Assembly (NCBI GenBank): GCA_023053545.1
Contig: JAKZAN010000004.1
Location: 9,858,001 to 9,922,000, forward strand
Length of the DNA stretch: 64,000 nt
Source of the DNA: Lepidurus packardi
Lineage: Eukaryota > Arthropoda > Branchiopoda > Notostraca > Triopsidae
Direction of reading: 5' to 3'
Shown here: piece by piece, positions 14,522 to 43,903 of the stretch
Position numbering within the stretch: position 1 is the stretch's first letter
How the letters are laid out: the number at the start of each line of letters is the position of its first letter
Made by a program: the position numbers and the translations under genes
Notes under the pieces: model-generated
Seen by the model: the letters and a program-made list of their open reading frames with translations, nothing else
Told to the model about the DNA's origin: nothing
Databases searched by the model: none

Positions 14522-14598
14522 CTTTTTGATCTACTTTCTTAAATGGTAACAAACAGGAGCACGAATGATTAAGCTGCTTGTCAAAGGTGTTACCATCA

Positions 14599-14671
14599 GG
14601 GGGTGTAGCTCAAATGGTAGAGCGCTCGCTTAGCATGCGAGAGGCACGGGGATCGATACCCCGCATCTCCA
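14599..14671 (+). tRNA. tRNA-Ala (anticodon AGC), copy 3
   Basis: Identical 73-nt sequence, starting 150 bp after copy 2. Followed by TTTCTCTTTTTG, where the first run of four or more T is slightly displaced. The 3' flank beyond it is unrelated to the other copies, marking the end of the tandem array. Confidence 0.95.
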
Positions 14672-20955: not shown

Positions 20956-20963
20956 TATATATA
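20956..20963 (+). promoter_or_regulatory. TATA box, chitin synthase copy A
   Basis: TATATATA, with the surrounding sequence (AAGTTATTTTTTGTATATATAGCC) conserved in unit B. Transcription is expected to start about 30 bp downstream, near 20987. Confidence 0.6.
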
Positions 20964-20986
20964 GCCATCGTAACCTAGGCTGCCCG

Positions 20987-21236
20987 GAAGCGAGGGCTTT
21001 CGGTGGTTGTTAGGTTTTGTGTAGGTTGGCTCTTCGCTCTCGAAGACTTTTGCAGTCGTGTCTTGGGTGGTGAACGGGAACTTTGGATACCAAGCAGGTG
21101 AGGTGCCTCAGTGTATTACCAACAGTCGGAGAGGCATATTATACTTTCACGGAACCCCTGTGCCAAGAGTTGTGTCATTGACTGGTGGATTATGCATTAA
21201 GAACGTGCAGCATTGGCGGATATTCACCCATTCGAG
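20987..21236 (+). other. Predicted 5'UTR exon 1, chitin synthase copy A
   Basis: Starts about 30 bp after the TATA box (approximate) and ends at a strong donor (CATTCGAG|GTAAGTG). It contains no long frame joined to the coding exons. Coding exon 2 has its acceptor at 22274, so a first intron of about 1 kb lies in the 5'UTR. The exon and its donor are conserved in unit B. Confidence 0.5.
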
Positions 21237-22318: not shown

Positions 22319-25300
22319 ATGGCGCGAATTCCTGCGCCCATGGACGCCGAAATGAGTGACGAAGAAGGAGACTATAGCGGAGATGACGAAACCTCGCCAT
22401 TGACCAACGATATCTACGGGGGCAGGTAAAACTTAACTCTTGAGACGGATTGGGCAAGCCAATAGTTAGAAAGAAGATGGGGGACCTTGTTTTTCTGCTC
22501 ATGATCATCATAAAAGACTTCCTTGTTGTTCTTTCTGGACACATTTTTTTTTACTTTCGTTAGCTTGGAAACAAAATGCTCGGACCAATCCTTCCCGTTG
22601 TCCTTGCAAATCATGAATAATTTAACCAGTTCATAGTCGCCGCCCTCGCCTGCGGCACGGGCAGTACCTTCTCTTTTAGAAAATAACCTACATAGCTTAC
22701 ACCACGGCTCACGATTACTGCCTCCTACTAAACATGCGATAAAAATGCAACCTTCCGTAACAAAAGCGTTTCCTAAGAATGCTTCTTGATGGCTTCTTTA
22801 TCTCATTAGGATCTCTTATCTCTTTTCCGCCTTTGAATTCCCGTTTGCGAAAAATAATCTTCAATTGACGTGTTGTTTAGTTAGTAACCTGCATGTTAGA
22901 AATATTTATAAATTCTGCTTGATCTTTTTACTTGTCTCATCAGGATCTCGAATCTCTTTTCCCTTTTTTAATTCCCATTTGAAAAATATTTTGCAACTAA
23001 TGTGTTAACTACCTGAATATTAGAGATACTTATAAATCTAATTTAGAGTAATTCGAGGGAAGAAATTAGAATTCAGAACTTCCATTTTAGATTTTATCTA
23101 AAATTGCAATTCTAAAATTCCAGTAGTTTTTTTAAGCCGTAGATATAATTCATATCATAAGTTATGATTTTCATTTATAACTATTGAAATTCGATGAAGT
23201 ACTTGAATATTAATCAATTATTATCTTGTAGCCAACGGAGCACTCCAGAGACAAAAGGTTGGGATGTTTTTCGAAACCCTCCTCCCGAGTCCGAAAGCGG
23301 ATCTACTGCCAATCAACAATGGCTGGAACTTACAGTCCGCATATTGAAAGTATTTGCGTATTTAATCACGTTCGTCGTTGTCCTGGGAGCCGGTATCGTG
23401 TCAAAAGGCACGGTACTTTTTATGACTTCCCAGGTTAAATCAAACCGTACTGTTGCATACTGCGGCAAGGACATCAGTAAGGACAAATTGTCAATTTTTT
23501 TTTACTGCGATAATTGTGAAAGCGGATCGCTAAACGCGCAAATGGCTTTTCTTTCACAGAACGAGGGAAAGATATGGAAGCTACACTGCCAGAACTGGAA
23601 CAAATCGCATGGATTTGGGTTCTGTTCTTTGCCTTCATAGTGCCCGAAGTGTTTATGTGGTTCCGATCAGCTCGCATCTGCTTTTTCAAGTCATCACGCA
23701 GACCGCCATTTCTCGATTTCCTCATCGTCACTTTCTTTGAAACTTGCCACGTGATTGGTGTAGCTTTACTCATGTACGTCGTCCTACCCGAGCTCAATGT
23801 CGTACAGGGAGCTATGATCACCAACTGCGTTTGCCTCATCCCCGGAATTTTCGGTTCGTCAAATCTTTTCTTTATGACTTTTTCTACCTCTCTTTAATTT
23901 ATCACATTAAATAATTGAATTAATTATTCACTGAAAAAAGAGTTTAATTTATTAAAAGTAGTATATTAGTATTAAATTAGTATTAAATTCTTGAAGAAAT
24001 CAGTTTAACGAGAGAATTAATTTATCGAAGAAATTATTACAACCGGTTTAACCTTCTCAAGTTTAATCACCCGTGAATTTTTTCTACAGGGTTGATGTCG
24101 CGCTCTAATAAGGAATCGAGAAGGCTAGGTAAGAGTATAATGGACGGCGTATCTATTGTTGCGCAAATTTCTGGATGCGTTTTATGGCCTTTATTGTCGG
24201 GCTACAAACAGCCGAGTTTGTGGGCCATTCCCTTTGCCCTGGCCCTGACTTCGTTCGGCTGGTGGGAAAACTACGTGGATAAACACTCGCCTTTAGGTAC
24301 AGGAAAACTGTTCATTGAAATAGTTGAATGGGTTTTGGTGGATTTTTAAACGGTTTTTAATGTCTTGTGTAGGGGTCATGAAGTACTTGGGTAAAGTGAA
24401 AGAGCGGTTGAAGCGAAACCGTTATTTCACCTACTTCTTCATGTCCATATGGAAGGTGATGGTTTTCCTCGCCACCACGGTCACGATCTTCTACATGTCG
24501 ACGGGGAAAGTAGATTACCTGTTTGCCAACTTTGCCAAGAGTTTTGCGTCGCACAAGATTAACGTGACGGAAGTAAGGGGTTTTTAATCTGATTTGTTTT
24601 GTTTCTTTAGTGTTAATTTCAATCTTCTTGACGGACTGATTTGTAGAAAGCTGCTCCGACAAGTCCTCAGACGGATAGTTTCCGCGCGGATCTGTTGCAA
24701 GAAAGCAATCTAATCGACTCTTGGTCCAATACTCAAATCTACGTTTTCCTCATTCAGGTGTTTTCCACCTGGTTTTGCTACATTTTCGGTAACTTATCCT
24801 AATTATTGTCTTTGTTGTTGATTCTTACTTCGTACTCAACTTTTTACCCATTTCAGGAAAGTTTTCTTGCAAGATTTGCATCCAAGGTTTCAGCTTCGCC
24901 TTTCCTGTGAATTTGACCATTCCCGTCACTATTTCATTGCTAATTGCAGCCTGTGGTATTCGTATCGGAAACACTTGCGCTTTCGACGGGGTAATTCCCT
25001 TCTATCTGTACTGGGAATGTCCCAGTGGCGATTTCTTGACAGATATTATTCTCCATCAAGTAAAGAGCGAGAAAAGAGAAATTTCGAAAGCGATTCTAAC
25101 TTTTACTAATTTAGCATGCTTGGGTTTGGCTTCTATGGCTACTGTCGCAAACTTGGATTACCTTGCACATTTGGACGCCCAAATGCGAGCGTTTAGCCAG
25201 CACCGAAAAACTTTTTGTCAACCCTTTTTATTCCTCCCTTTTAATCGATCAATCCATGGGCCTCAACCGTCGCAGAGATGACGAAAGTGACGTCAAAACC

Positions 25301-28300
25301 GAGGTAAAATTTGTATTAGTAATAACCATTGTATTACTATTATTAAATATAAATATAGTTAATACAAATTATATAATACGAATTAATAAACACTAGTAAC
25401 AATAATTATCGTTATTACTAATCATATTTAATAATTATTGTTTTGTTTTACCATTATTATTTAATAGTTATATTTACTAAAATAATAATGAAAATTTCAA
25501 GAAAGAGTATTTCAAGTTTACAAAACGAGAATCTTAGGAACTGGAACATTTGCCGGACAAAGAGGGCGGCGTGATGGATGCGGATATGACACAATACTAC
25601 GAAACTATTTCGAACCACACGGAATCTTCTTCCACCGCACCGAAAGCGGTCAAAGCATCCGATTCCATCACTCGTATTTACACCTGCGCTACCATGTGGC
25701 ACGAAACGACCGACGAAATGATGGAAATGTTAAAGTCTATTTTCCGTATGGACGAAGATCAGTCGGCTCGTCGGGTGGCGCAAAAGTACCTCAAAATTGT
25801 GGACCCTGACTACTACGAGTTCGAAAGTAACTCGTCCTTATTCATTCTTGTAGTTTATCTTTGTAAAAGTTCTTAACAATACGTTGTATCTCCAGCTCAC
25901 ATCTTCTTTGACGACGCCTTTGAAATTTCGGACGACAACGATGACGAAAACCAGGTGAACCGGTTCGTGAAATTGCTCGTCAACTTAATGGACGAAGCTG
26001 CTTCTCATGTACATCAAACTACCATCCGTATTCGACCGCCGAAGAAGTACCCCACCCCTTACGGAGGACGTCTAGTATGGACCCTTCCCGGCAAAACCAA
26101 GATGATTGCTCATCTCAAGGACAAGGACAGGATTCGGCATCGTAAACGCTGGAGCCAGGTCATGTACATGTACTATTTACTCGGCAACAAGCTCATGGAC
26201 CTGCCAATCTCCGTGGACCGGAAGGAAGTCATTGCTGAAAACACGTTCTTGCTCACCCTGGATGGAGACATTGACTTTCAACCCAACGCTGTACAACTGC
26301 TGGTTGACTTGATGAAAAAGAACCGCAATCTGGGCGCTGCTTGTGGTCGTATTCATCCCGTGGGATCAGGACCCATGGTGTGGTACCAGATGTTCGAATA
26401 CGCTATCGGCCATTGGCTCCAGAAGGCCACGGAACACATGATTGGCTGCGTACTTTGTAGTCCTGGCTGCTTCTCACTCTTCAGAGGCAAATCTCTTATG
26501 GATGATAACGTTATGCGCAAGTATACCACCAAATCCGAGGAAGCGCGGCATTACGTCCAGTACGATCAGGGCGAGGATCGTTGGCTCTGCACGCTTTTAC
26601 TGCAAAGAGGATACCGAGTCGAGTACTCGGCTGCTTCCGACGCTTACACGCATTGTCCAGAAGGCTTTGGAGAGTTTTACAACCAGCGGCGACGGTGGGT
26701 ACCCTCCACTATGGCTAACATCATGGATTTGCTTATGGACTACAAGCGGACCATCAAGATCAACGACAACATCTCCCTGCTCTACATTTCCTACCAGGTA
26801 ACATTTAACAATAATATTAGCAATAATTCAAATAAGTATATTAGTACCCCTAATAATAGTAATACTGCTATTACTAATTAGATACTAACAGTAATACAAC
26901 CAGCTGCTATTAATAATATACTAAGATATGACTTGCGTACTCTGCTGTACGCCATACAGCGGTTCCGACTAAGCGCGACCCGGATAGTCGGAACCGCCTC
27001 GTGCGGTACCATTGCCAGGGGATGGCCTCCCGGTTGCTAAGCCTAACCGAAACTTGCCCGAAGTCATCAGGCGCGGGTCTCTGCCCGGCAGGACAGCGAC
27101 CACGGGAAAAAAAAGTCAGTTTATGATATGAGTTTTCAAATTAACGAAAGCACCTACAGACTTGTCTGACCATTCAAAAGAAAGGTATTGGTGCCACCCC
27201 TATCAGTCGAGGGATCGATTTTCAATGCGCTCATAGGCAAAGGCGCCAGGGCTTCGGACAGCTGTCCGAACACAATATTATATTAGCAATATTATAATAG
27301 GACAATTTTAAATTAGGCGGAAAGGGAGCTTCTTTCGCTAAATAACTAATTACTCGGTTAAAATGCATATTTGACATAGGGATTCTTCACCGAAACAATT
27401 CATTTGGTTTGCTCTTGAACACGTATTTTTCGCTTTGAAACCTTACCCCGCTTTAATAATGAAATTATCATAATCATAATGATAAAAAGAAATAGAAGAC
27501 CACGGTAGACGGTAAAACATCCATTATACATGTAGTTGGTATAAAAATTCGACTAGATTAATTATAATAATAAAATCATGTTCCGGATTCGAACTATGGT
27601 ATTGACGGTAGATGAATTGCCATTTTCATCCACAGACTATGTTGATGGGTGGTACTATCCTGGGTCCCGGAACCATTTTCCTTATGTTGGTGGGTGCCTT
27701 CGTGGCTGCTTTCCGTATCGACAATTGGTCGTCCTTTTACTACAACATTATCCCCATTTTTGCGTTCATGTTTATCTGTTTCGTCGCCAACGCCAAAATA
27801 CAGGTAAGTGGATACGGTTTCCTTTCCTTGTGCTTTCCAACCTTCTGTTTTTATGTTATTGTTTTTTCCCCTTGTTTGTAATCGTGATTTCCTCTCCCTA
27901 CCCCCAAAAAAGCTGTTCGTGGCACAAATACTATCAGCCGTGTACGCCATGGTGATGATGGCTGTGATCGTGGGTACGGCCCTGCAGTTAGGCGAGGACG
28001 GAATCGGATCGCCATCTGCCATTTTCTTGATAGCTTTATCCGGTTCGTTCTTCATAGCTGCGTGTTTACATCCACAAGAGTTTTGGTGTGTCGTCCCTGG
28101 AATGCTGTACTTGCTTATGATTCCTTCTATGTACCTCCTGCTTATCCTGTACTCGCTCATCAACCTGAACGTGGTCTCTTGGGGTACGCGTGAAGTACAA
28201 ACCAAGAAGAGTAAAAAGGTAAAAATACTAATTTTATTCCTCTTTATGGGGGATTCTTTCTTTCTTTTCTCTTTCTGGACTATGAGTTATTGCACGCGGG

Positions 28301-31300
28301 TTAGATTTTCACCGCACAGATCCTTAGTACGGTCTATGCCATGGTGATGAGGCGGTGTTGGTGGGAATTATCATGGAAATTCAGGAAGACGGACTTTTGG
28401 CTTCTACGGCGCTCTTTTTTTTTGGCTATGGCGGGCTCCTTCATACTAACCACTTTGCTACATCCGAAAGGACTGTATTGCCTGCCGTGCTGACTCATCT
28501 ACTACTTGTCTGTACCTTCCATGTATACCTACTCATCATCTGTTCTCTCTTTAACATGAACAACGTCACTTGGGGAACTCGGGAATCAGTGCTCAAAAAG
28601 ACGGCAAAGGTTCTTTTTTCTTTTTAGCAACTTTTACTAACCTTACACTCTTGATGCGAGCTCATTTAACTCGAGTGTGTGTTTTGGGTGCTTAGGAAAT
28701 GGAAGCAGAGAAGAAAGAAGCAGAAGAGGCTCAGAAAAAAGCGAAATCCTCTTCACTTCTGGGAATTCTTCAACGAGCTGGCGACAAACCCGAAGAAGAA
28801 GGTTCTATCGAATTCTCGTTGGCCAATCTCTTCAAGTGCATGTTGTGCACGTACCCCAAGTCTAACGACGAGAAACAACAGCTGCTTCGAATCGCAGAAT
28901 CTTTGGAGACCTTGGGAAAGCGTTTGGACTCTATTGAAAGGTAATGCCTCAAATTCCAAAAAATGACGAAAGATAAGCTGATTCTGGTTGTCGTTTTGCA
29001 GATGCGTTGATCCTCATGGTGCTTTGACTGGAAGAAGACGGTCTGTCTCTCGTGCTTCCGTGAAGGGCATAAGCGAAGCAGCTGCGTTAGCTTCTGTACA
29101 TGAAGATGCCGAGGAAGAATTTCCCGAAGACGAAGAAAGTGACGAAGAATCGTTGGGTGAGTTGAAGTTCCTTTTCCTCGAATAGAACGAAAGCAGACAC
29201 CAGTAACAGGTTTCATAACACGACTTTTCCAATGACAGAACCTAAACAAGAGCGCGACAACTTGATTAACCCGTACTGGATCGAAGATAAAGACCTCAAA
29301 CGTGGAGAAGTGGATTACTTGGAAGGACCTGAAATTCAATTCTGGAAAGATTTGCTGGAAAAATATCTTTACCCTATTGACGAAGATCCAGCATCGCAGG
29401 TAAGAGGGGAACCTGTTTTCCACTCAAGTTTTATATTACATTTGCATTTATTTTTTTTAATGTTTAATGACACCTTGGGGCAAACAAAATTTGATATTTT
29501 AGAAACGCATCGCTGAGGAACTGAAGGAATTACGCGACAAATTCGTGTTTTTCTTCTTCATGATTAACGCCTTGTTTGTCTTAATTGTTTTCCTGTTGCA
29601 ACTTAACAAAGACAACATCCACATCCAGTGGCCTCTGGGTGTGAAAACCAACATTACGTACAACGAAGCCAATTCCGAGGTAGATATATCTGCTTTTTTG
29701 TTTCTCCCTTTTTCGGTTCCCCTATAGAAACGGATCGCCACTGAGTTAATCGAACTACGCAACAAGTCCGTGTTCTTCTTCTTCATGTTCAACGCTCTGT
29801 TTGTTCTCATCGTGTTTCTTTTACAACTCAACAAAGACAATTTACACATTGACTGGCCTCTGGGCGTCAAGACAAACATAACTTACGTGGAGGAAACTTC
29901 AGAGGTAGTAAAACTTTTGGAAACCCTCGCAACTGTCGGTTTCTTCACAGTTGACAGCGTGGATAATCCTTACACACATATTTAGCATGATCGTTTTGTA
30001 AATCTTTTTGCATCTCGGGCGTTTTTCACTCCAGAATCCCAGCTCTTCATGTTCAACCACAATGTGCTTAACATTCGTTCGCCAAATCCGAAATTTTTAA
30101 GCCTCAAACGTTTCTGCATGATCCTTGCTCTAGGCACTTGAGCCTCTGCAGGTATTGCGGGCTTTTCGGTAGTAAACTCAACTTCCACTTTCTTTTCTGG
30201 AGAGTGAAATCATTAATTTGTTTATTTTCTACGAAGGAAAAAGCACGTGACTTAGAAATTGACTTTTAAATTATCGCTCTAGTTTTTTGTTTGTCCTCGT
30301 TATATTGCTATGCACCGACTTAGCCTAGATCCTTTAATCCCGCTTGGCATGTCGATAGCTGAAGAGCATGCTGTTGAAAACCCTTTGGATGGTAACTAAT
30401 ATTGATTTTATTTTAAATCTAGGTGCTTATCAGCAAAGAATATCTACAACTTGAACCCATCGGTCTGGTTTTCGTGTTCTTTTTCGCTCTTATTCTGATC
30501 ATACAGTTCGTCGCTATGCTCTTCCATCGATTCGGCACCTTGTCGCACATTCTTTCGTCGACTGAGCTCACTTGCTGCAGTAAAAAGGTAGGATTATCTC
30601 GAAAGAAGAAGCTTTAAAAGGAATAAGCTTCAAAGCAAGGAAAAAGATAGGATTTTTCATGAAAAATTTCCTAAAAGGTGGATGACATCTCCGAGGACGC
30701 GTTTATCGACAAGAACGCCGTGGAGATTGTACGTAATTTGCAGAAACTACGGGGCCTCGATGAAGGCGAGTACGACAGCGAAGACGGATCAGGACAAGAT
30801 CGACTGGCTCGACGTCGCACGATCCACAATCTGGAGAAACAGAAACAGCGAAAACGAGCTATTGGCACTCTGGATGTGGCCTTCAAGAAACGGTTCTTCG
30901 CCATGTCGACTGAAACAGGCGTCGAAGGTAAATAAGCGTCTCAATTGAAAGCCCAACTCGAAAATTTGACTGTTTTGCGGCGCCAAAATTGATCCTTTCC
31001 TTGACCCCTTTTTCAGAAACTCCCGTCATGAATCATATGAGGAAGCTGTCCATGCGAAGAGAAACCATCAAGGCTCTGGAAGTGCGCCGCAACACCATCA
31101 TTGGTGAGCGCAAGAAGTCGTCCATGCAAACCCTTGGGGCCAACAACGAATTCAACAAGAACGGAAAGAGCAGGCATCGCAATTCCACTCAAATTAGTCA
31201 AAATATCGAGAGTATATTTTCGCCCAACGGCAATCCTAACGAGGTAACAACGTTTTACCCTTTCACAAAGTACGATTTTACTGTATTTCTCAAAGTTTTA

Positions 31301-31940
31301 TTATATTTCTAATTATTATTTTTTTTATTAATTTCTTTTAAGTTTTATTAATTTCTTTTAATTTTTATTATATTTCTTATAAGTTCTATGGTATAGTAAT
31401 ACAGTAATTTACTATCACATTAGTATCCTATTTTTATTATTTTCTTTGCTATAGCTTTGTTACCTATTTTGGAAATTTTTGGTAATGGGATATTAAGATG
31501 GGATTTTAGTTAATAGATAGCTAATAACTGTGTACTTTATTATTTATTTACTTTGTTATCGATTTATTTTTGTACATTTATTGCTAAAAGCTAATTGCTA
31601 AATATTGTTTAATACCTTATTTGCGATATTATTTTCCTATAGCTTTTTTTTTTACCTATTTCGAATAATTTTTTACGATAATTCTTTGAAGAATTATCGT
31701 ATGGTAATGGGATCTTAAGATGGGATTTTAGATAATAGATAGCTAATAATCGCCATGAATCATATGAGGACTTTCTCTTGCCGACTTTCGATAATAATAC
31801 ATTAAAAAAATTATTACTAAAAGGGGTACGAAGGGAGCAGCGATGACGACCAATCAGTGAAAATGCAGCGCTTTCCGCCCATGAACGGCCGAGGTTCGGT
31901 TACTTGGAAAGACGGCGACCGCCGAAACAGCCAAATGTAA
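22319..31940 (+). CDS. Chitin synthase (CHS1 type), tandem copy A
   Basis: Coding exons: 22319-22425 (exon starts 22275), 23232-23476, 23560-23853, 24090-24296, 24373-24572, 24647-24788, 24857-25059, 25115-25303, 25538-25826, 25896-26797, 27636-27803, 13a 27913-28218, 28696-28940, 29002-29156, 29239-29399, 17a 29503-29679 or 17b 29728-29904, 30423-30587, 30678-30927, 31017-31243 and 31824-31940, giving 1582 residues. The N-terminal part holds multiple membrane helices (KGWDVF...SKGTVLFMTSQ). The GT2 catalytic core has CATMWHETTDEM, LTLDGDIDF, GEDRW (about residue 852) and the chitin-synthase signature QRRRW (about 888). Then come the TM cluster (13a), a coiled coil (EAEKKEAEEAQKKAK), further TM helices and a Ser/Arg-rich tail. 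It polymerises UDP-GlcNAc into chitin at the plasma membrane, for cuticle in CHS1 enzymes. Its alternative exon 13b is dead, while 17a and 17b are both usable. Confidence 0.96.
26959..26997 (+). repeat. Conserved 13-bp intronic hairpin, copy A
   Basis: GCGGTTCCGACTA, a 13-nt loop, then TAGTCGGAACCGC: a perfect stem in the 838-bp intron before exon 12. The same stem is perfect in copy B (39187-39225) although the loop differs. It lies upstream of the alternative exons 13a/13b. Confidence 0.75.
27913..28218 (+). other. Copy A alternative exon 13a (functional)
   Basis: 306 bp, 102 codons, phase 0 at both ends. It encodes several TM helices after the catalytic core (LFVAQILSAVYAMVMMAVIV through NLNVVSWGTREVQTKKSKK). 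It is the homologous partner of 13b, with aligned landmarks FVAQILS, YAMVMMAV, LHP.E, PSMYLLLI and WGTRE. Confidence 0.92.
28305..28609 (+). pseudogene. Copy A alternative exon 13b (degenerate pseudo-exon)
   Basis: 305 bp. Compared with intact 13b of copy B it has a 1-bp deletion at GTGATGAGGCGG, a compensating 1-bp insertion in the T run near 28414-28422, a GGA to TGA stop in the CCGTGCTGACTC stretch, and another 1-bp deletion near TCCATGTATACC. The acceptor (GGTTAG) and donor (AAAG|GTTCTT) sequences are still present. Translation in the frame entering from exon 12 is destroyed. Confidence 0.93.
29503..29679 (+). other. Copy A alternative exon 17a
   Basis: 177 bp, 59 codons, phase 0/0. It encodes one TM helix (FFFFMINALFVLIVFLLQL) followed by an N-glycosylation sequon (NIT). 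This is exactly the size of the known insect CHS1 alternative exon (8a/8b in Tribolium, 7a/7b in Drosophila kkv). Confidence 0.92.
29728..29904 (+). other. Copy A alternative exon 17b (intact)
   Basis: 177 bp, 59 codons, and a clear duplicate of 17a (KRIATELIEL...FFFFMFNALFVLIVFLLQL...YVEETSE). It begins 48 bp after 17a ends. That intron is so short that joining 17a to 17b is probably disfavoured, which fits mutually exclusive use. The frame and both splice sites are intact. Confidence 0.9.
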
Positions 31941-32005
31941 GGAATGCTAACGTGTCCATAGAAAGAGAAAAAGAAAAAGCTTGTGATCGCGTACGCTTAC
32001 GAAAA

Positions 32006-32011
32006 AATAAA
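32006..32011 (+). terminator. Polyadenylation signal, chitin synthase copy A
   Basis: AATAAA, 66 bp after the stop codon. The equivalent hexamer in copy B is at 43768-43773. Confidence 0.6.
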
Positions 32012-33202
32012 TAAATTCAAAGGCGAGACCAGAAACTTTATAAATTGACAAAAAGCTGTTGTAAATGCTTCGTGTGGTTACAAAAAATGAACGGATGTGG
32101 GAAAATTGACTTGTTTTTTAATACAGCTCCAACATAAAAACATGATTTTCCAAATTTTCCATGGTTTTCCAAAGAAATTACGGTGTGCAAGGAATGGATG
32201 GATGGACGGACAATGGATGGATAAGAAATTTACCGCGGATTTTTTTGGCGGGCACAGAGACAGAAACTGTGCATGTGTATGTGCGTTTCCTAGCGATCAA
32301 CTGTGATGTAAAAACTGACAACGACCACATAAAACTTACCAGGCTTTTAGCGTCGTGTTTGCCTGAATAGAAGTGCCTCGAGGTGCGAATGCCCGATACA
32401 AAATAAAGACGACGGAGATTTTTTCATGTTATGTGTGAATGGTTCCGTTGCCGGGTAACTTTTGAGAAGACACTGCGCGAAATTTAAAAAAAAACGAAGA
32501 AGGAATTGATGGCTGACCACTGCTGGCGTACTCGAAAACTTGTATTGCTGAAGCTATCCAACTCTGGAGAGTTGAAGGTCGAGTTTATGCTTGTGCGTGT
32601 GCAGTTTAGCTTTAGCCAATACTTGCGTAGGAATTACCATGTTACTAGAACTTGGAACCAGAAAGCATTGTAGCAAAAACTCGGTAAAAATGTGTTCTTT
32701 TTTCCCGTAAGAGGGAAGGATTAGTTTGGTATCTTGGTATGATTGGGATTGAGGAATGTGTGAGTGACGTAAAAGACTTCGATGCGTTATTTCCCCCTAA
32801 TCTAAATAGTAAACACGGAGAGCAGGTAATTTGGGGAGAGGAGCAGGACAGGCTGTTAATATGCGAAATTGAAATTTTGTTGCAAATTGAAATTGATTTC
32901 CGTGCCGAGTTTCGATTCAACCTTAGAATCCCTTACATATTTTCTTTTGAATTGGCAATAAATACGCAAGAAACATGATTAAAACATTGACTTTCATTGT
33001 GTTCTAATAAATAAGTGTCTTATCAGGTACGCATTCGTTAGATAAAAACTAGGTAATCTTGGTTGGCGCTGTGTTCTGCGTTGGGATTCTAAATTGTTTC
33101 AGATGGCACTCTTCGCTTTTATTGGGTGGAGCAGCAATTTACGTCTAGGCAGCGAATCGGTTGGTAACTGAGCGGTCGACGGCTCTTATAAGTTATTTTT
33201 TG

Positions 33203-33210
33203 TATAAATA
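33203..33210 (+). promoter_or_regulatory. TATA box, chitin synthase copy B
   Basis: TATAAATA at the position equivalent to TATATATA in copy A. The flanking sequence is conserved, so copy B kept its own core promoter. Confidence 0.6.
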
Positions 33211-33233
33211 GCCACCGTAACCTAGGCTGCCCG

Positions 33234-33482
33234 GAAGCGAGGGATTTTGGTGGTTATTAGGTTTTGTGTAGGTTGGTTCTTCGCTCTCGAAGACTTTTGC
33301 AGTCGTGTTTTGGGTGGTGAACGGGAACTTTGGATACCAAGCAGGTGAGGTGCCTCAGTGTATTACCAACAGTCGGAGAGGCATATTATACTTTCACGGA
33401 ACCCTGTGCCAAGAGTTGTGTCATTGAGTGGTGGATTATGCATTAAGAACGTACAGCATTGGTGGATATTCACCCATTCGAG
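33234..33482 (+). other. Predicted 5'UTR exon 1, chitin synthase copy B
   Basis: Equivalent to exon 1 of copy A, with the start approximate. It ends at CATTCGAG|GTAAGTG. The first intron runs to the acceptor at 34017 and is shorter than in copy A because about 500 bp are missing. Confidence 0.5.
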
Positions 33483-34061
33483 GTAAGTGTTTCAATGCGC
33501 CAAAGAGTTATTTGCAAATACTACCCAAAAGTGCTTTGCTCGGCTGATTTAAGAGGGCAAGTAAGTAATAGTTATTTCGTCAAGTAATACTTATCTGGGC
33601 TTTCTGACGCGGCCTTGTCATGAAGGTTGACAGGTAAATGAAGATGGTAAGATCAAACGGAAATCCGTGGACTCGGTTGTATTGACAAACGCTTAATATG
33701 AAATTTTCTAGGACGATCTCGAAATGAACGAGGCATTTCAAAGTTATCTAATCAAATTGGGTTCGGCGTTAGGGACATAAATTAGTATCTAAATGACTGG
33801 AGGACAAAGCTTGAGCTTTTTTATCACACTTCAAGGAACGTTGTGATAAACAGATTATTTCCAACATCTTACGTCAGCGTGGCGAATTAGGGTGTTCAGT
33901 ATTTCAAAGATTAATTCCTAATTGCCGGACCTGTTATTGGCCACGTAACCGTAGTTAATGAGTACTTATTTTGTGTGGGGAAATGGGACTAACGTGTTAA
34001 TCTTTATTTCTTTCAAGGTGTCGAGCGTTTTTAACGGAAGGATTTAAATATTCTCGGAAAT

Positions 34062-37000
34062 ATGGCGCGAATCCCTGCGCCCATGGACGCCGAAATGAGT
34101 GACGAAGAAGGAGACTATAGCGGAGATGACGAAACCTCGCCATTGACCAACGATATCTACGGGGGCAGGTAAAACTTAACTCTTGAGACGGATTGGGCAA
34201 GTCAATAGGTAGAAAGAAGATGGGGTGACCTTGTGTTTTAACTCTTTATTGCCATACACACTTCCTTGATGTTCTTTCTGGACACACTTTTGTACTTCAG
34301 TTAGCTTGAAATGAAAATGCTCGGATCATTCATTTCCATTGTCCTTGCAAATCATGAGTAATTTAACCAGTCCACTGTCACCGCCCTCGTCCGCGGGACG
34401 GGCAGTACCTTCTTGTTTAGAAAATAGCCTACATAGTTTACGTCTAGGCTCACGCTTACTGTCTTACCCATGGTATAAAGGTTTACACAGTATGGTAACA
34501 GGGCTACCTTCCAATGTTGTGGTTTTAAGCCAACTTTCTCGGTCCCCAGAGTAAATTCAGGTAAAAGGCGAGAATATCAAGGGAAAAATTCGCAAACCTC
34601 CCAGTGAAATTCAAAAAAAGGTCACGACGGTTTACAAAGCGCAATGTAGGTAGGATCCTAGGTCAGTCCAAAACTCCTTGACAAAAGTCCTTGAGTACCC
34701 GAGAGAAACGTTGCCAGTCCCCTTCAATTCGTTCCTGAACACTTTCTGGTAGATTAGGAATGCCTTACCTAGCGTAGGTAGGACAAGTCTGTGAATCCAT
34801 TCCTCCTATGTTCCTTCGCCCCCGCACATCGTTTTGAGACAGAGAAAACAGGTAGTTAATACCCTTACATTGAAAGATAGCCTACAATACAGTGTAAACC
34901 TTCATGCTGTAAACTTGCCTACTAAAAATATGGCCAAAAAATGCAACCTTCTGTAACGAAAGCCTTTCCATAGAATGCTTCTTGATCGCTTCTTTTGTCT
35001 CATCAGGATCTCTTTTCCGCCTTTGAATTTCAGTTTGAAAAAATATTCTTCAATTAGCTAATCATGTTGTTTAGCTAATTAACAGAATGTTAGAAATATT
35101 TGTAAATTCTTCTTGATCGTTTTTCTTGTCTCATCAGGATCTAGAATCTCTTTTCCGCCTTCGAATTTCCATGTGCAGAATATTCTTCAACTAATGCGTT
35201 GTTTAGTTAATTACCTGAATGTTGGAATAATTATGCATTTTAATTAAGAATAATACGAATTACTAAATCGGATATCCAAATCTAATAAATTATTTAATAA
35301 TTTCAAGTATTTTTCCATTTAAAATTTTAAAAATGAGTTCCATTGAGCTAAAATTGTAATTCTCTTGATTCTATTGCAAATTCAAATGGTTTTTAAGCCT
35401 TAGATTTAATTACTATTAAATCATTATTAGATCTGATTCTTAATATTGAAATTATATTAAGTATATGAATCTTAATTATCCGTTATTATCTTGTAGCAAA
35501 CGAAGCACTCCAGAGACCAAAGGTTGGGACGTTTTTCGAAACCCTCCTACCGAGTCCGAAAGCGGATCTACTGCAAATCAACAATGGCTGGAACTTACAG
35601 TCCGTATATTAAAAGTATTTGCGTATTTAATCACGTTCGTCGTTGTCCTGGGAGCCGGTATCGTGTCAAAAGGCACGGTACTTTTTATGACTTCCCAGGT
35701 TAAAGCAAACCGTACTGTTGCATACTGCAGCAAGGACATCAGTAAGGACAAATCGTCAATTTTTTTTACTGCGATAATTGTGAAAGCGGATCGCTAAACG
35801 CGTAAACGGCTTTTCTTTCACAGAACGAGGGAAAGATATGGAAGCTACACTGCCAGAACTGGAACAAATCGCATGGATTTGGGTTCTGTTCTTTGCCTTC
35901 ATAGTGCCCGAAGTGTTTATGTGGTTCCGGTCAACTCGCATCTGCTTTTTCAAGTCATCACGCAAACCGCCATTTCTAGATTACCTCATCGTCACTTTCT
36001 TTGAAACCTGCCACGTGATTGGCGTAGCTTTGCTCATGTACGTCGTCCTACCCGAGCTCAATGTCGTACAGGGAGCTATGATCACCAACTGCGTTTGCCT
36101 CATCCCCGGAATTTTCGGTTCGTCAAATCTTTCCTTTATGACTTTTTCTACCTCTCTTTAATTTATCACATTAAGTAATTGAATTAATTGTTCACTGAAA
36201 AAAAGAGTTTAATTTATTAAAAGTAGTATATTAGTATTAAATTAGTATTAAAATATTGAAAAAATATGAAAGCAATTGTTCAAGGAAGATAATAATTTAA
36301 TGTAAGTCAATAAGTATTGAACTAATTAATTTGTGGAAGAAATCACTTTATCGAGAGAATTAATTTATCGAAGAAATTATTCCAACCGATTTAACCTTTT
36401 CAAGTTTAATCACCTGGGAATTTTTCCTACAGGGTTGATGTCGCGCTCTAATAAGGAATCAAGAAGGCTAGGTAAGAGTATAATGGACGGCGTATCTATT
36501 GTTGCGCAAATTTCTGGATGCTTTTTATGGCCTTTATTGTCGGGCAATAAACAGCCGAGTTTGTGGGCCATTCCCTTTGCCCTGGTCCTGACTTCGTTCG
36601 GCTGGTGGGAAAACTACGTGGATAAACACTCGCCTTTAGGTACTGGAAAACGGTCCATTGAAATAGTTGAATGGATTTTGGTGGATTTTAAACGGTTTTG
36701 AATGTCTTGTGTAGGGGTCATAAAGTACTTGGGTAAAGTGAAAGAGCGGTTGAAGCGAAACCGTTATTTCACCTACTTCTTCATGTCCATATGGAAGGTG
36801 ATGGTTTTCCTCGCCACCACGGTCACGATATTCTACATGTCGACGGGGAAAGTAGATTACCTGTTTGCCAACTTTGCCAAGAGTTTTGCGTCGCACAAGA
36901 TTAACGTGACGGAAGTAAGGGGTTTTTAATCAGATTTGTTTTGTGTCTCTAGTGTTAATTTCAATCTTCTTGACGGACTGATTTGTAGAAAGCTGCTCCG

Positions 37001-40000
37001 ACAAGTCCTCAGACGGATAGTTTCCGCGCGGATTTGTTGCAAGAAAGCAATCTAATCGACTCTTGGTCCAATACTCAAATCTACGTTTTCCTCATTCAGG
37101 TGTTTTCCACCTGGTTTTGCTACATTTTCGGTAACTTATCCTAATTATTGCTTTTGTTGCTGATTCTTACTTCGTACTCAACTTTTTACCCATTTCAGGA
37201 AAGTTTTCTTGCAAGATTTGCATCCAAGGTTTCAGCTTCGCTTTTCCTGTGAATTTGACCATTCCCGTCACTATTTCGTTGCTAATTGCAGCCTGTGGTA
37301 TTCGTATCGGAAACACTTGCGCTTTCGACGGGGTAATTCCCTTCTATCTGTACTGGGAATGTCCCAGTGGCGATTTCTTGACAGATATTATTCTCCATCA
37401 AGTAAAGAGCGAGAAAAGAAAAATTTCGAAAGCGATTCTAACTTTTACTAATTTAGCATGCTTGGGTTTGGCTTCTATGGCTACTGTCGCAAACTTGGAT
37501 TACCTTGCACATTTGGACGCCCAAATGCGAGCGTTTAGCCAGCACCGAAAAACTTTTTGTCAACCCTTTTTATTCCTCCCTTTTAATCGATCAATCCATG
37601 GGCCTCAACCGTCGCAGAGATGACGAAAGGGACGTCAAAACCGAGGTAATATTACTATTAAATAGTAATAATAAATACAATAAAATAAACAAAAAAATAG
37701 TATCGATTATTGTTACTAAAATAATGATGAAAATTGTACAAAGAACCTACTAAGTTTATAAAACGCGAATCTTAGGAACTGGAACATTTGCCGGACAAAG
37801 AGGGCGGCGTGATGGATGCAGATATGACAGAACACTTCGAAACTATTTCGGACCACACAGAATCTTCTTCAACCTCACCTAAAGCGATCAAAGCGTCCGA
37901 TTCCATCACTCGTATTTACACCTGCGCTACCTTGTGGCACGAAACGACCGACGAAATGATAGAAATGTTAAAGTCTATTTTCCGTATGGACGAAGATCAG
38001 TCGGCTCGTCGGGTGGCGCAAAAGTACCTCAAAATTGTGGACCCTGACTACTACGAGTTCGAAAGTAACTCGTCCTTATTCATTCCTGTAGTTTATCTTT
38101 GTAAAAGTTCTGAAAAATACGTTGTATCTCTAGCTCACATCTTCTTTGACGACGCCTTTGAAATTTCGGACGACAACGAGGACGAAAACCAGGTGAACCG
38201 GTTCGTGAAATTGCTCGTCAACTTAATGGACGAAGCTGCTTCTCATGTACATCAAACTAACATCCGCATTCGACCGCCGAAGAAATACCCCACCCCTTAC
38301 GGAGGACGTCTAGTATGGACCCTTCCCGGCAAAACCAAGATGATTGCTCATCTCAAGGACAAGGACAGGATTCGGCATCGTAAACGCTGGAGCCAGGTCA
38401 TGTACATGTACTATTTACTCGGCAACAAGCTCATGGACCTGCCAATCTCCGTGGACCGGAAGGAAGTCATTGCTGAAAACACGTTCTTGCTCACCCTGGA
38501 TGGAGACATTGACTTCCAACCCAACGCTGTACAACTGCTGGTTGACTTAATGAAAAAGAACCGCAATCTGGGCGCTGCTTGTGGCCGTATTCATCCCGTG
38601 GGATCAGGACCCATGGTGTGGTACCAGATGTTCGAATACGCTATCGGCCATTGGCTCCAAAAGGCCACGGAACACATGATTGGCTGCGTACTTTGTAGTC
38701 CCGGCTGCTTCTCACTCTTCAGAGGCAAAGCTCTTATGGATGATAACGTTATGCGCAAGTATACCACCAAATCCGAGGAAGCGCGGCATTACGTCCAGTA
38801 CGATCAGGGCGAGGATCGTTGGCTCTGCACGCTTTTACTGCAAAGAGGATACCGAGTCGAGTACTCGGCTGCTTCCGACGCTTACACGCATTGTCCAGAA
38901 GGCTTTGGAGAGTTTTACAACCAGCGGCGACGGTGGGTACCCTCCACTATGGCTAACATCATGGATTTGCTTATGGACTACAAGCGGACCATCAAGATCA
39001 ACGACAACATCTCCCTGCTTTACATTTCCTACCAGGTAACATTTAACAATAGTAACAACAATACTAATAAATATATTACTACCCCTAATACAAATACTAC
39101 AGCTAATACTAATTATATACTAACAATAATACAACTACTATTAATAATAAACTCATATTATTGCGGCTTATGCTGTGCGCCATACAGCGGTTCCGACTAA
39201 GCGTTACCCGCATAGTCGGAACCGCCTCGTGTGGTCCAATTGGCGTTAGGCTGAGCTCTCGGTTGCTAAGCTGGACCGAAATTTGCCCGAAGACTCTCAG
39301 GCGCCCTTGCAGGTTTCGTCTCGAGAGTCTCGGCTCAGCATGACATATCTGCGAAGAAAAAGTCACTGTTTTATGATTGATTTGTATAAATTTAACCAAA
39401 GCATCTAATATTAAGATAGGAAAATTAGAAATTTGTCGGAGAACGGCGGAGCTTATTCCGTTAAGTAGTTAATTACTCTGTTACTATACATCATTGACAT
39501 AGGTGTTCGTCGCCCGAACACTTCATTTAATCTGTTATATAACACATTTTAACCTTAGTCACTCTTAATGAAAACGATAGTAATAATAATCATAATAATA
39601 GAAAGACCACAGTAGATGGTAAAACATCCATTACAGATGTATTTGGTATAAAAAATCGACTAAATTAATTATAATAATAAAATCGTGTTCCGGATTCGAA
39701 CTATGGTATTGACGGTAGATGTATTGCCGTTTTCATCCACAGACTATGTTGATGGGTGGTACTATCCTGGGTCCCGGAACCATTTTCCTTATGTTGGTAG
39801 GTGCCTTCGTGGCTGCTTTCCGTATCGACAATTGGACTTCCTTTTACTACAACGTTATCCCCATTTTCGCGTTCATGTTTATCTGCTTCGTCGCCAACTC
39901 CAAAATACAGGTAAGTGGAAACTGTTTCCTTCCCTTTTCTTGTTCTTTTCAACCTTTTGTGTTTATGTTATTGTTTTGGGGGGTTTTTCTCCCGTGTTTG

Positions 40001-43000
40001 TAATCGTGATTTCCTTTCCTTACCCCCAAAAAAGCTGTTCGTGACACACATTCTCAGCCGTGTACGCCATGGTGATGATGACTGTGATCGTGGGTACGAC
40101 CCTGCAGTTAGGCGAGGACGGAATCGGATCGCCATCTGCCATTTTCTTGATAGATTTATCTGGTTCGTTTTTAATAGCTGCGCGTTTACATCCACAAGAG
40201 TTTTGGTGTGTTGTCCCTGAAATGCTGTACTTGCTTATGATTCCTTCTATGTACCTCCTGCTTATCCTGTACTCGCTCATCAACCTGAACGTAGTCTCTT
40301 GGGGTACGAGTGAAGTACAAACCAAGAAGAGTAAAAAGGTAAAAATACTAATTTAAATCCTCTTTTTTGGGGATTCTTTCTTTCTTTTCTCTTTCTGGAC
40401 TGTGATTTTATTGCACGCGGATTAGATTTTCGTCGCACAGATCCTTAGTGCGGTCTATGCCATGGTGATGATGGCGGTGTTGGTGGGAATTATCTTGGAA
40501 ATTCAGGAAGACGGACTTTTGGCTCCTTCGGCACTCTTTTTCTTCGCTACGGCGGGCTCCTTCATACTAACCACTTTGCTACATCCGAAAGAACTTTATT
40601 GCCTGCCATGCGGACTCATCTACTACTTGTCTGTACCTTCCATGTACCTGCTCCTTATCATCTATTCTCTCTTTAACATGAACAACGTCACTTGGGGAAC
40701 TCGGGAATCAGCAATCAAAAAGACGGCAAAGGTTCTTTTTTCATTTTTAGCAACCATTACTAACCTTACATTCTTGACGAGAGCTAATTTAACTCGAGTG
40801 TGTGTTTTGGGTGCTTAGGAAATGGAAGCAGAGAAGAAAGAAGCAGAAGAGGCTCAGAAAAAAGCGAAATCCTCTTCATTTCTGGGAATTCTCCAACGAA
40901 CTGGTAACAAACCCGAAGAAGAGGGTTCTGTCGAATTCTCGTTGGCCAATCTCTTCAAGTGCATGTTGTGCACGTACCCCAAGTCTAACGACGAGAAACA
41001 ACAGCTGCTTCGAATCGCAGAATCTTTGGAGACCTTGGGAAAGCGTTTGGACTCTATTGAAAGGTAAGTTGTGCCTCAAAAAATGACGAAAGATAAGCTG
41101 ATTCTGGGTGTCGTTTTGCAGATGCGTGGATCCTCATGGTGTTTTGACTGGAAGAAGACGGTCTGTCTCTCGTGCTTCCGTGAAGGGCATCAGTGAAGCA
41201 GCTGTGTTAGCTTCTGTACATGAAGATGCCGAGGAAGAATTTCCCGAAGACGAAGAAAGCGTCGAAGAATCCTTGGGTGAGTTGAAGCTCCTTTTCCTCG
41301 AATAGAACGAAAGCAGACACCAGAAAGAGGTTTCATAACACGACTTTTCCAATGACAGAACCTAAACAAGAGCGCGACAACTTGATTAACCCGTACTGGA
41401 TCGAAGATACAGACCTCAAACGTGGAGAAGTGGATTACTTGGAAGGACCTGAAATTCAATTCTGGAAAGATTTGCTGGAAAAATATCTTTACCCCATTGA
41501 CGAAGATCCAGATTCGCAGGTAAAAGGGGAACCTGTTTTCCACCCAAGTTTTATTTTCTATTTGCATTTATTTTGTTTAAATGTTTACTGACACTTCGGA
41601 GCCAACAAAATTGTATATTTTAGAAACGCATCGCTAAGGAACTGAAGGAATTACGCGACAAGTTCGTGTTTTTCTTCTTCATGATTAACGCCTTGTTTGT
41701 CTTAATTGTTTTCCTGTTGCAACTTCACCAAGATACCATCAACATCCAGTGGCCTCTGGGTGTGAAAACTAACATTACATACAACGAAGCCAATTCCGAG
41801 GTAGATATATCTGCTTTTTTGTTTCTCCCTTTTTCGGTTCCCCTATAGAGACGGATCGCCACTGAGTTAATCGAACTACAAAAGAAGTCTGTGTTCTTCT
41901 TCTTCATGTTCAACGCTGTTTGTTCTCATCGTGTTTCTTTTACAACTCAGCAAGGACAATTTACACATTGACTGGCCTCTGGGCATCAGAACAAACATAA
42001 CTTACGTGGAGGAAACTTCAGAAATAGTAAAACTTTTGGAAACCCTCGTGACTGTCCGTTTCTTCGCAGTTGACAGCGTGGATAATCCTTACACACATAT
42101 TTTGCATGATCATTTTGTAAATCTTTTTGCATCTCGGGCGTTTTTTGACTCCAGAATGTCAGCTCTGTATGCTCCACCACAATTCACTTAATATTCGTTC
42201 GCCAAATTTGAAAATTTTTCTTACACAAATTTAAGCCTCAAACGTTTCTGCATGATCATCGCTCCAGAAACTTGAGCCTTTTCAGGTATTTTTTGTTTTC
42301 TACAAAGGAAAAAGCACGCGACCTAGAAATTGACCTTTAGATTATCGTTCTAAATTCTTTTGTTTGTCCTCGTTAGTTTTCTATGCACCGACTTAGCCTA
42401 GATCCTTTAGTCCCGGTGATATGTAGATAGCTGAAGAGCATACTATTGAAAGCTTTTTGGATGTAACTAATATTGATTTTATTTTAAATCTAGGTGCTTA
42501 TCAGCAAAGAACATCTACAACTTGAACCCATCGGTCTGGTTTTCGTGTTCTTTTTCGCTATTATTCTAATCATCCAGTTCGTCGCTATGCTCTTCCATCG
42601 ATTTGCCACCATGTCGCACATTCTTTCATCGACTGAGCTCACTTGCTGCAGTAAAAAAGTAGGATCATCTCAAAAGAAGAAGCTTTAAAAGGAATAAGCT
42701 TCAAAGCGAGGAAAAAGATATGACTTTTCATGAAAAATTTTCTAAAAGGTGGATGACATCTCCGAGGACGCGTTTATCGACAAGAACGCCGTGGAGATTG
42801 TGCGTAATATGCAGAAACTCCGGGGCCTTGATGAAGGCGAGTACGACAGCGAAAATGGATCTGGACAAGATCGACTGGCTCGACGTCGCACGATCCACAA
42901 TCTGGAGAAACAGAAACAGCGAAAACGAGCTATTGGTACTCTGGATGTGGCCTTCAAGAAACGGTTTTTCTCCATGTCGGCTGAAACAGGCGGCGAAGGT

Positions 43001-43705
43001 AAATAGGCGTCTCAATTGAAAGCCCAACTCGAGAATTTGACTGTTTTATGGAGATTCGACGCCCAAAATTGACCCTTTCCTTGACCCCTTTCTCAGGAAC
43101 TCCCGTCATGAATCATATGAGGAAGCTGTCCATGAGAAGAGAAACCATCAAGGCTCTGGAAGTGCGCCGTAACACCATCATTTTCGAGCGCAGGAAGTCG
43201 TCCATACAAACCCTGGGAGCTAACAACGAATTCAACCAGAACGGACAGAGCAGGCATCGCAATTCCACTCAAATTAGACAAAATGTCGAGAGGATATTTT
43301 CGCCCAACGGCAATCATAACGAGGTAACGTTTTACTCTTTCACATAGTCAGTCTTATTGATTTTTATTATATTTTTAATCATTAATTTCTATTGCTTAAT
43401 AGTTTTGCAGCACATTTCTTAAAAGTTATATGGTAGTAACAAAGTCATTTACTATCACGTTAGTATCATATTTGTATTGTTTAATATCTTATTTGCGATA
43501 TTATTTTCTTTTTTTTTACCTATTTCGATAATTCTTTGAAATGGGACTTTCGATAATAATACATTTAAATTTTTTTTATTGCCAAAAGGGGTACGAAGGG
43601 AGCAGCGATGACGACCAATCAGTGAAAATGCAACGCTTTCCGCCCATGAACGGCCGAGGTTCGGTTACTTGGAAAGACGGCGACCGCCGAAACAGCCAAA
43701 TGTAA
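34062..43705 (+). CDS. Chitin synthase (CHS1 type), tandem copy B
   Basis: Coding exons: 34062-34168 (exon starts 34018), 35497-35741, 35824-36117, 36433-36639, 36715-36914, 36989-37130, 37199-37401, 37457-37645, 37776-38064, 38134-39035, 39743-39910, 13b 40426-40731, 40819-41063, 41122-41276, 41359-41519, 17a 41624-41800, 42494-42658, 42749-42998, 43097-43323 and 43589-43705. All lengths equal those of copy A, giving 1582 residues. QRRRW, GEDRW and the other GT2 motifs are intact. In exon 11 I count only three amino-acid differences from copy A in 301. The C-terminal tail differs more (about ten of 76 in exon 20). It can use only 13b and only 17a, because 13a and 17b are broken. The predicted product is therefore a different TM-cluster isoform from that of copy A. 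Confidence 0.95.
39187..39225 (+). repeat. Conserved 13-bp intronic hairpin, copy B
   Basis: The same 13-bp perfect stem as in copy A, with a 13-nt loop of different sequence. It is followed at about 39290-39330 by a second inverted repeat (GACTCTC/GAGAGTC) that copy A lacks. Confidence 0.75.
40035..40338 (+). pseudogene. Copy B alternative exon 13a (frameshifted)
   Basis: 304 bp, against 306 in copy A. Two bases are missing near CACACATTCTCAGCCG, so after LFVTHILS the frame shifts out of the TM sequence. The remainder still aligns but carries seven amino-acid changes in 92 (including A to D and C to R inside helices), suggesting relaxed constraint. The splice sites appear intact. Confidence 0.92.
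40426..40731 (+). other. Copy B alternative exon 13b (functional)
   Basis: 306 bp, 102 codons, phase 0/0. It begins IFVAQILSAVYAMVMMAVLV and ends WGTRESAIKKTAK. Compared with 13a it shares the helix pattern but differs in the loops (EIQEDGLLAPS versus QLGEDGIGSPS). Acceptor GGATTAG and donor AAAG|GTTCTT. Confidence 0.92.
41624..41800 (+). other. Copy B alternative exon 17a (functional)
   Basis: 177 bp in frame. It differs from 17a of copy A at five residues (for example LHQDTINIQ versus LNKDNIHIQ). It is the only usable member of the 59-codon pair in this copy. Confidence 0.9.
41849..42023 (+). pseudogene. Copy B alternative exon 17b (dead)
   Basis: A 2-bp deletion (AACGCTCTGTTT in A, AACGCTGTTT in B) shifts the frame into a stop, and the donor TCAGAG|GTAGTA has become TCAGAAATAGTA. 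It therefore can neither be translated nor spliced normally. Confidence 0.93.
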
Positions 43706-43767
43706 GGAATGCTAACGTTTCCTTAGAAAGAATCCAAGAAAAGCTTGTGATCGCGTACGCTTATGAA

Positions 43768-43773
43768 AATAAA
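43768..43773 (+). terminator. Polyadenylation signal, chitin synthase copy B
   Basis: AATAAA, 63 bp after the stop codon, equivalent to the copy A signal. Confidence 0.6.
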
Positions 43774-43903
43774 ATAAAAATGCAATTCAAAGGCAAGACT
43801 AGAAGCTTTGTAAATTGACAAAAAGCTGTTGTAAATGCTTTCATGCGGTTACAAAATGAACGGATGTGGGAAAATTGACTTGTTTTTTAATACAGATCCA
43901 AAA

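What the first reader, a model, noticed from the sequence alone, without database searches (positions are those of the whole stretch)
27913..40731. Reciprocal loss of alternative exons 13a and 13b in tandem chitin synthases
Each unit contains two homologous 306-bp exons in the same slot. In copy A, 13a is intact and 13b has three indels plus a stop. In copy B, 13b is intact and 13a has a 2-bp deletion. All other constitutive exons are intact in both copies, with identical lengths. The simplest reading is that one gene making two isoforms by mutually exclusive splicing was duplicated, and each copy then lost a different isoform. This is the duplication-degeneration-complementation idea at exon level, also reported for fish mitf duplicates.
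Basis: partly seen in the sequence, partly recalled or inferred. Interest (0 to 1): 0.93.

Follow-up and report, generated by a model that had tools for sequence, protein, structure and literature searches.

The report
Chitin synthase twins split alternative exons
In a water-flea-like crustacean, a chitin synthase gene that could choose between two versions of one exon was copied in tandem, and each copy has kept one version and let the other decay, which resembles how the separate cuticle and gut chitin synthases of insects may have arisen.

Summary
Confirmed and extended. Two tandem chitin synthase genes (coding spans 22319-31940, 34062-43705) each have 20 coding exons and an open 1,582-residue frame. 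All five frameshifting indels lie in the three dead exons.

The window is branchiopod (74% identity to Daphnia). The 12a/12b pair is ancient: seven of 280 fetched proteins, from insects and decapods, hold both in this order. An exon-12 tree places the window's 12b with 12b exons of other CHS1 genes and with CHS2 segments; of single-12b proteins whose exon 16 could be typed, 45 of 49 are 16a, as in copy B. Exon-level duplication-degeneration-complementation is well supported as anatomy. Expression, exclusive splicing and selective upkeep are not shown. Whether CHS2 arose likewise, once or repeatedly, is open.

The parts
19921..32132 (+). tandem unit 1 (upstream region, copy A gene, 3' region)
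   Evidence: blastn self-comparison; unit 1 19921-32132 matches 32175-43901
32175..43901 (+). tandem unit 2 (upstream region, copy B gene, 3' region)
   Evidence: upstream parts differ at 65 of 1370 aligned sites
22319..31940 (+). chitin synthase copy A, 20 coding exons, 1,582 aa with 12a
34062..43705 (+). chitin synthase copy B, 20 coding exons, 1,582 aa with 12b
27913..28218 (+). copy A exon 12a, intact, 306 bp, carries the WGTRE motif
28305..28609 (+). copy A exon 12b, dead: three single-base indels and an in-frame stop; splice dinucleotides kept
40035..40338 (+). copy B exon 12a, dead: 2-bp deletion, 9 replacements including in WGTRE; splice dinucleotides kept
40426..40731 (+). copy B exon 12b, intact, 306 bp
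29503..29679 (+). copy A exon 16a, intact, 177 bp
29680..29727 (+). copy A 48-bp intron between 16a and 16b, identical to that of copy B
29728..29904 (+). copy A exon 16b, intact, 177 bp
41624..41800 (+). copy B exon 16a, intact, 177 bp
41849..42023 (+). copy B exon 16b, dead: 2-bp deletion and donor GT changed to AT

Best explanation
A branchiopod gene of the CHS1 (cuticle) type carried two pairs of alternative exons, 12a/12b and 16a/16b. It was duplicated in tandem (unit about 12 kb). Each copy then lost by mutation the exon that the other copy still supplies at position 12, and copy B also lost 16b. Copy A can now make 12a with 16a or 16b; copy B can make only 12b with 16a. What used to be a choice in splicing has become a choice between two genes (duplication-degeneration-complementation at exon level). 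Shown: anatomy, damage, relaxed constraint on the dead exons, antiquity of the pair in other pancrustaceans. Inferred: that both copies are expressed, that the exons were used one at a time, and that selection keeps both copies because of the split.
For: Open full-length frames with 12a in A and 12b in B only. The dead exons hold all five frameshifting indels (p 2e-6) and the exon-12 pairs show a threefold replacement difference with normal synonymous difference. In dead 12a, 5 of 9 replaced sites are invariant in all 16 reference 12a exons; in dead 12b, 3 of 12 are invariant in all 24 reference 12b exons. Constitutive Ka/Ks between copies 0.23. Seven of 280 fetched proteins hold both exons in the same order; two Fopius proteins are identical over 1,161 constitutive residues and differ in exon 12. 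Exon-12 tree: pancrustacean 12a clade 98/96, 12b clade 100/97; window-only, hymenopteran-only and decapod-only origins rejected, p 0.0009, 0.012, 0.033 (groups chosen after the tree was seen). Papers: the 177-bp exons are mutually exclusive in insect CHS1 (PMC2561029, PMC6355952, passages); Drosophila Kkv and Chs2 cannot replace each other, and WGTRE is needed for ER exit of Kkv (PMC12431666, abstract and passages).
Against: No transcript evidence. The dead 12 exons keep their splice dinucleotides, so they may still be spliced in at times or act as poison exons. The second pair is lost on one side only (16b in B), so the split is not fully reciprocal. Upstream regions are nearly alike (65 of 1,370 sites), so no regulatory split is visible. 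Of the branchiopod proteins at hand, Daphnia P0082 and Artemia P0083 show only 12a and Artemia P0034, a divergent second gene, only a 12b type; P0082 stands for 16 member sequences that I did not see singly. At several of the 12 changed sites of dead 12b the references carry both residues, so the direction of change is unclear there. The genome could not be searched for further copies.
Confidence: 0.8

Rival explanations
1. Copy B (or A) is simply a decaying duplicate and the reciprocal look is coincidence: one copy lost an exon early in its death.
For: Only one event of each kind; B has lost two exons; duplicates often die (general knowledge).
Against: Both 1,582-residue frames are fully open, Ka/Ks between them is 0.23, and no frame or donor/acceptor damage was found outside the dead alternative exons.
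Confidence: 0.12
2. Assembly artefact: two divergent haplotypes placed in tandem, each with a different broken exon, or consensus errors.
For: No reads available; the two genes are 92% identical where aligned.
Against: Only the gene unit is repeated, with the 3' region of A joined to the upstream region of B, and the self-comparison shows no second copy of the neighbouring genes in the window; the damage goes with replacements at invariant sites, not with homopolymers alone.
Confidence: 0.05
3. The broken exons are kept on purpose as poison exons: their splice sites are intact, and including them shifts the frame and lowers output of that copy. (Not exclusive with the best explanation.)
For: Splice dinucleotides of both dead 12 exons are kept.
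Against: Replacement changes at invariant sites and several separate lesions look like free decay; B 16b lost its donor outright. No test of splicing was possible.
Confidence: 0.08
4. An old CHS1/CHS2 tandem pair homogenised by gene conversion, not a recent duplication.
For: Synonymous divergence is uneven: exons 4-8 and 10 have Ks 0 to 0.05 and exon 9 0.09, while most other exons lie between 0.05 and 0.16, which fits some conversion.
Against: Each copy holds a recent relic of the exon kept by the other, and introns match throughout; A and B are sisters with Daphnia CHS1 outside.
Confidence: 0.07

Closest known systems
Fish mitf duplicates (Altschmied et al. 2002, seen only as a reference title in PMC5306129; not held; details recalled)
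   Different: There a vertebrate transcription factor; here a membrane enzyme, a tandem copy, relics still in place, and a second exon pair lost on one side.
Insect CHS1 177-bp mutually exclusive exons (6a/6b in Aedes, PMC2561029; SfCHS1a/b, PMC6355952; passages)
   Same: Window 16a/16b: same length, 59 residues, same types by profile.
   Different: Copy B has lost 16b; the 306-bp pair 12a/12b is not described in the passages read.
Insect CHS1/CHS2 (cuticle/gut) gene pair
   Same: CHS2 segments fall in the 12b clade of the exon-12 tree; where exon 16 of 12b-bearing proteins could be typed it is mostly 16a (45 of 49, a set that includes some CHS1 isoforms); CHS2 has no reported variants (PMC3759951). 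Copy B has the same make-up.
   Different: By the constitutive tree copies A and B are both branchiopod CHS1, sisters to each other. Well-known CHS2 such as that of Locusta could not be typed at exon 16.
Anabrus simplex pair P0087 (12a) and P0198 (12b)
   Same: Two CHS1-derived proteins of one species, 87% identical over 1,396 constitutive residues, with the lowest identity at exon 12.
   Different: Relic exons cannot be seen because only proteins are at hand.
Functional sharing model of splicing and duplication (PMC5306129, passages)
   Same: Ancestral isoforms distributed between duplicates.
   Different: Here the intermediate stage with dead exons is preserved.

Membership tests
Exon-level duplication-degeneration-complementation | two duplicates, each lacking a different exon of an ancestral alternative pair | tested here: met
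Exon-level duplication-degeneration-complementation | ancestor carried both exons | tested here: met
   relics in both copies; seven outgroup proteins; AU tests
Exon-level duplication-degeneration-complementation | both duplicates functional and jointly needed | not testable with these tools
   only open frames and Ka/Ks 0.23
Mutually exclusive tandem exons | homologous neighbouring exons of equal length and phase | tested here: met
   306/306 bp and 177/177 bp in the intact exons, both starting on a codon boundary
Mutually exclusive tandem exons | transcripts with one or the other, not both | tested here: inconclusive
   Fopius P0005/P0010 differ in exon 12 and are otherwise identical over 1,161 residues, but seven annotated proteins hold both, perhaps by gene-model error; no window transcripts
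Arthropod CHS1 (type A) | groups with CHS1 by constitutive sequence; QRRRW, EDR, WGTRE | tested here: met
   winA+winB+Daphnia 99/99 in the 45-row tree; motifs located in A and visible in the B translation
Insect CHS2 (type B), for copy B | groups with CHS2 by constitutive sequence | tested here: not met
   copy B is sister to copy A, 100/100
Insect CHS2 (type B), for copy B | no alternative exon at the 177-bp site | tested here: met
   16b dead; CHS2 has no variants (PMC3759951, PMC6355952, passages)
Insect CHS2 (type B), for copy B | expression in midgut | not testable with these tools
   no expression data

The most novel reading that the evidence does not exclude
The cuticle (CHS1) and gut (CHS2) chitin synthases of pancrustaceans are the two isoforms of one ancestral gene turned into separate genes: CHS2 kept 12b + 16a, CHS1 kept 12a with 16a/16b and in some lineages also 12b. 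This has happened more than once (insects, Anabrus, perhaps sawflies, Artemia and copepods), and the window is the youngest case, with the discarded exons still readable.
Probability: 0.4. Interest if true: 0.87.

Novelty: new variant of a known kind. Interest (0 to 1): 0.74.

Why it matters
Exon-level sharing-out of isoforms between duplicates is a known idea; here the dead exons can still be read in a tandem pair with a synonymous divergence of about 7%, so the intermediate stage is visible. It also exposes a second, ancient alternative exon pair in arthropod chitin synthase, carrying the WGTRE motif, which the papers and passages seen here do not mention, and ties it to the origin of the cuticle/gut enzyme split, whose basis of specificity PMC12431666 (abstract) calls unclear. 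Both points are directly testable by long-read cDNA.

Tried and rejected
Considered and set aside: a stop near 25867 in copy A lies in a 69-bp intron present in both copies; an apparent frame break in my first exon 7 was a missed 55-bp intron. Independent origin of 12b inside the window lineage: rejected. CHS2 segments grouping with 12a: rejected, p 1.3e-6; CHS1 12b exons alone as a clade: rejected, p 0.0076; CHS2 segments alone as a clade on exon 12: not rejected, p 0.078. All groups put to the AU test were chosen after a tree had been seen, so the p-values are optimistic. CHS2 monophyly on constitutive sequence: not rejected, p 0.10. The mixture-model tree (bootstrap not settled) puts some CHS2 (odonate, lepidopteran, hymenopteran, Artemia) beside CHS1 of the same group with middling support and leaves others (Locusta, Diploptera, mayfly, beetle) unresolved; the simpler model gathers most CHS2 in one clade, with long branches meeting. 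Exon-16 typing leaves 32 of 92 single-12b proteins undecided and 11 without the segment; 45 are 16a and 4 are 16b. My split of 12b proteins into CHS1-like and CHS2-like by 55% N-terminal identity is crude and puts some wasp CHS1 isoforms on the CHS2 side.

Errors of mine: the region was mis-set (residues 1044-1145; exon 12 is 983-1084), so that search covered the end of exon 12 and part of exon 13; later typing of the hits used the right exon. One search failed on output and was rerun. The second segment of Timema P0190 lacks WGTRE at its end, so its 12b is incomplete or misread; Frankliniella P0084 has 30 residues between its two segments.
Full report
Observation. From the raw sequence I built gene models with GT..AG introns. 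Each copy has 20 coding exons, a CDS of 4749 bp and 1,582 residues, copy A at 22319-31940 and copy B at 34062-43705. The 18 constitutive coding exons have the same lengths in both. Only A with 12a and B with 12b give an open frame; 12b in A and 12a in B break it. Copy A 12b has three single-base indels and an in-frame stop; copy B 12a has a 2-bp deletion.

A second pair of alternative exons, 16a and 16b (177 bp each), follows. It matches the classical mutually exclusive pair of insect CHS1 (59 residues, PMC2561029 and PMC6355952, passages read; profile typing). Both are intact in A. In B, 16a is intact and 16b has a 2-bp deletion and a donor changed from GT to AT. So the end state is A = 12a + 16a/16b and B = 12b + 16a. 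The 48-bp intron between 16a and 16b is the shortest of the gene, which may hinder splicing of both together; this is inference. The 86/87-bp intron between 12a and 12b gives no such hint.

More than chance. Five frameshifting indels fall in 784 bp of dead exon and none in 9,675 bp of live coding (p about 2e-6). Between copies, constitutive exons have Ka 0.017, Ks 0.072, ratio 0.23; the pairs with one dead member have ratios 0.69 (12a), 0.61 (12b) and 0.37 (16b). Replacement differences are enriched in exon 12 (p 1.2e-5, counts rounded), synonymous ones are not (p 0.49). Against other arthropods, dead 12a departs at 9 residues, 5 of them invariant in all 16 reference exons and one in the WGTRE motif; dead 12b departs at 12, of which 3 are invariant in all 24 references, several are variable there, and at one (position 97) the intact residue is itself in none. 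This is decay, not sequencing error.

Duplication. Self-comparison shows one tandem unit, 19921-32132 against 32175-43901, with collinear segments at 81-97% identity. The 3' region of A is joined to a second copy of the upstream region. Introns differ at 401 of 3,688 aligned sites, but two AT-rich introns raise this; upstream 65 of 1,370. Ks is low in exons 4-8 and 10, so some gene conversion is possible.

Whose gene. The best-scoring relative is Daphnia carinata (74% identity), then Artemia (70%) (120 best of 1,900 hits listed). In the mixture-model tree of the constitutive part (45 rows: 43 of 280 fetched proteins plus the two window copies; bootstrap not settled), A and B are sisters (100/100) next to Daphnia (99/99). 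The window is thus branchiopod, not Daphnia itself.

Outgroups with both exons. Three protein searches gave 280 proteins (each listing capped at 120 rows). Eight hold more than one exon-12 segment; in seven these are a 12a-type then a 12b-type segment (Diachasmimorpha, Frankliniella, Acromyrmex, Gryllus, Homarus, Chionoecetes, Timema), in six abutting; the eighth, Notodromas, repeats one near-identical 12b-like stretch and is likely a gene-model error. Of the rest, 180 are single 12a type and 92 single 12b type. Fopius P0005 (12b, a shorter record of 1,266 residues) and P0010 (12a) are identical over 1,161 residues outside the exon. A review states that most decapods have one CHS gene, and that Daphnia magna has about 200 CHS isoforms (PMC8002005, section 2.4).

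Exon-12 tree. With 77 rows (segments of 66 of the 280 proteins, plus four window exons) and 102 columns, pancrustacean 12a exons form one clade (25 rows, 98/96) and 12b exons another (40 rows, 100/97). The latter also holds the segments of insect CHS2, copepod and Artemia second genes. The bootstrap had not settled and columns are few. AU tests reject a separate origin of the pair in the window (p 0.0009), Hymenoptera (0.012) and decapods (0.033). They also reject CHS2 segments grouping with 12a (1.3e-6) and CHS1 12b exons as a clade without CHS2 (0.0076). All these groups were chosen after the tree was seen.

CHS2. Of 92 single-12b proteins, which include some CHS1 isoforms, 45 carry a 16a-type exon, 4 a 16b-type, 32 are undecided and 11 lack the segment; among 180 single-12a proteins the numbers are 87, 74, 5 and 1, with 13 holding both. 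By diagnostic residues, of 79 proteins put on the CHS2 side by a crude N-terminal cut, 64 have a 59-residue exon 16; 56 of these have the D seen in most 16a exons and 63 lack the F seen in most 16b exons. So 12b tends to go with 16a, the combination left in copy B. Constitutive sequences place some CHS2 near the CHS1 of the same order in the mixture tree, but one CHS2 clade is not rejected (p 0.10). Anabrus gives a second recent pair: P0087 with 12a and P0198 with 12b, 87% identical over 1,396 constitutive residues, the lowest identity being at exon 12.

Function. Exon 12 is residues 983-1084 of copy A and carries WGTRE at 1072; QRRRW is at 889. Six of the seven solved chains matched are chitin synthases and align to residue 1078 or 1085, that is through most of exon 12. 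In Drosophila, Kkv and Chs2 cannot replace each other and WGTRE is needed for ER exit of Kkv; chimaeras cut at WGTRE did not rescue (PMC12431666, abstract and passages). This fits a functional difference between 12a and 12b but does not show it.

Novelty. Ten literature searches of the held PMC library, several with more hits than were listed, showed no paper, by title, abstract start and passages read, that describes the 306-bp pair or derives CHS2 from it; most subscription papers are not held. Exon-level sharing-out itself is known (mitf and others; reference titles in PMC5306129). I therefore call it a new variant of a known kind.

Limits. The region was mis-set, as told in Tried and rejected.

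Noticed in passing
window 29680-29727 and 41801-41848: The 48-bp intron between 16a and 16b is identical in both copies (48 of 48), although the introns next to it differ at 13 of 103 and 51 of 453 aligned sites.
   Followed up: no
window 22426-23231 and 34169-35496: Intron 1 is 806 bp in A and 1328 bp in B and differs at 125 of 787 aligned sites, against 65 of 1370 upstream; a possible place of regulatory divergence.
   Followed up: no
window 24090-26797 against 36433-39035: Low synonymous divergence in exons 4-8 and 10 (exon 9 is higher) compared with most other exons, perhaps a gene-conversion tract.
   Followed up: partly
window 62014-62628: ORF with an interleukin-17 (PF06083) domain, above the curated cut-off, about 18 kb beyond copy B.
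   Followed up: no
window 17604-18329, 50693-51616, 53903-54784 (-), 56511-56813, 59376-60077: Neighbours by Pfam, of 9 ORFs scanned: importin beta-1, animal haem peroxidase, E2F factor, TruB C-terminal domain, helicase C-terminal domain; two ORFs gave no family and one a sulfotransferase match below the cut-off.
   Followed up: partly
window 6478-6810 and 14298-14674: Two short local duplications at 92-99% identity.
   Followed up: no
P0087 and P0198 (Anabrus simplex): A second recent CHS1-derived pair with 12a in one protein and 12b in the other.
   Followed up: partly
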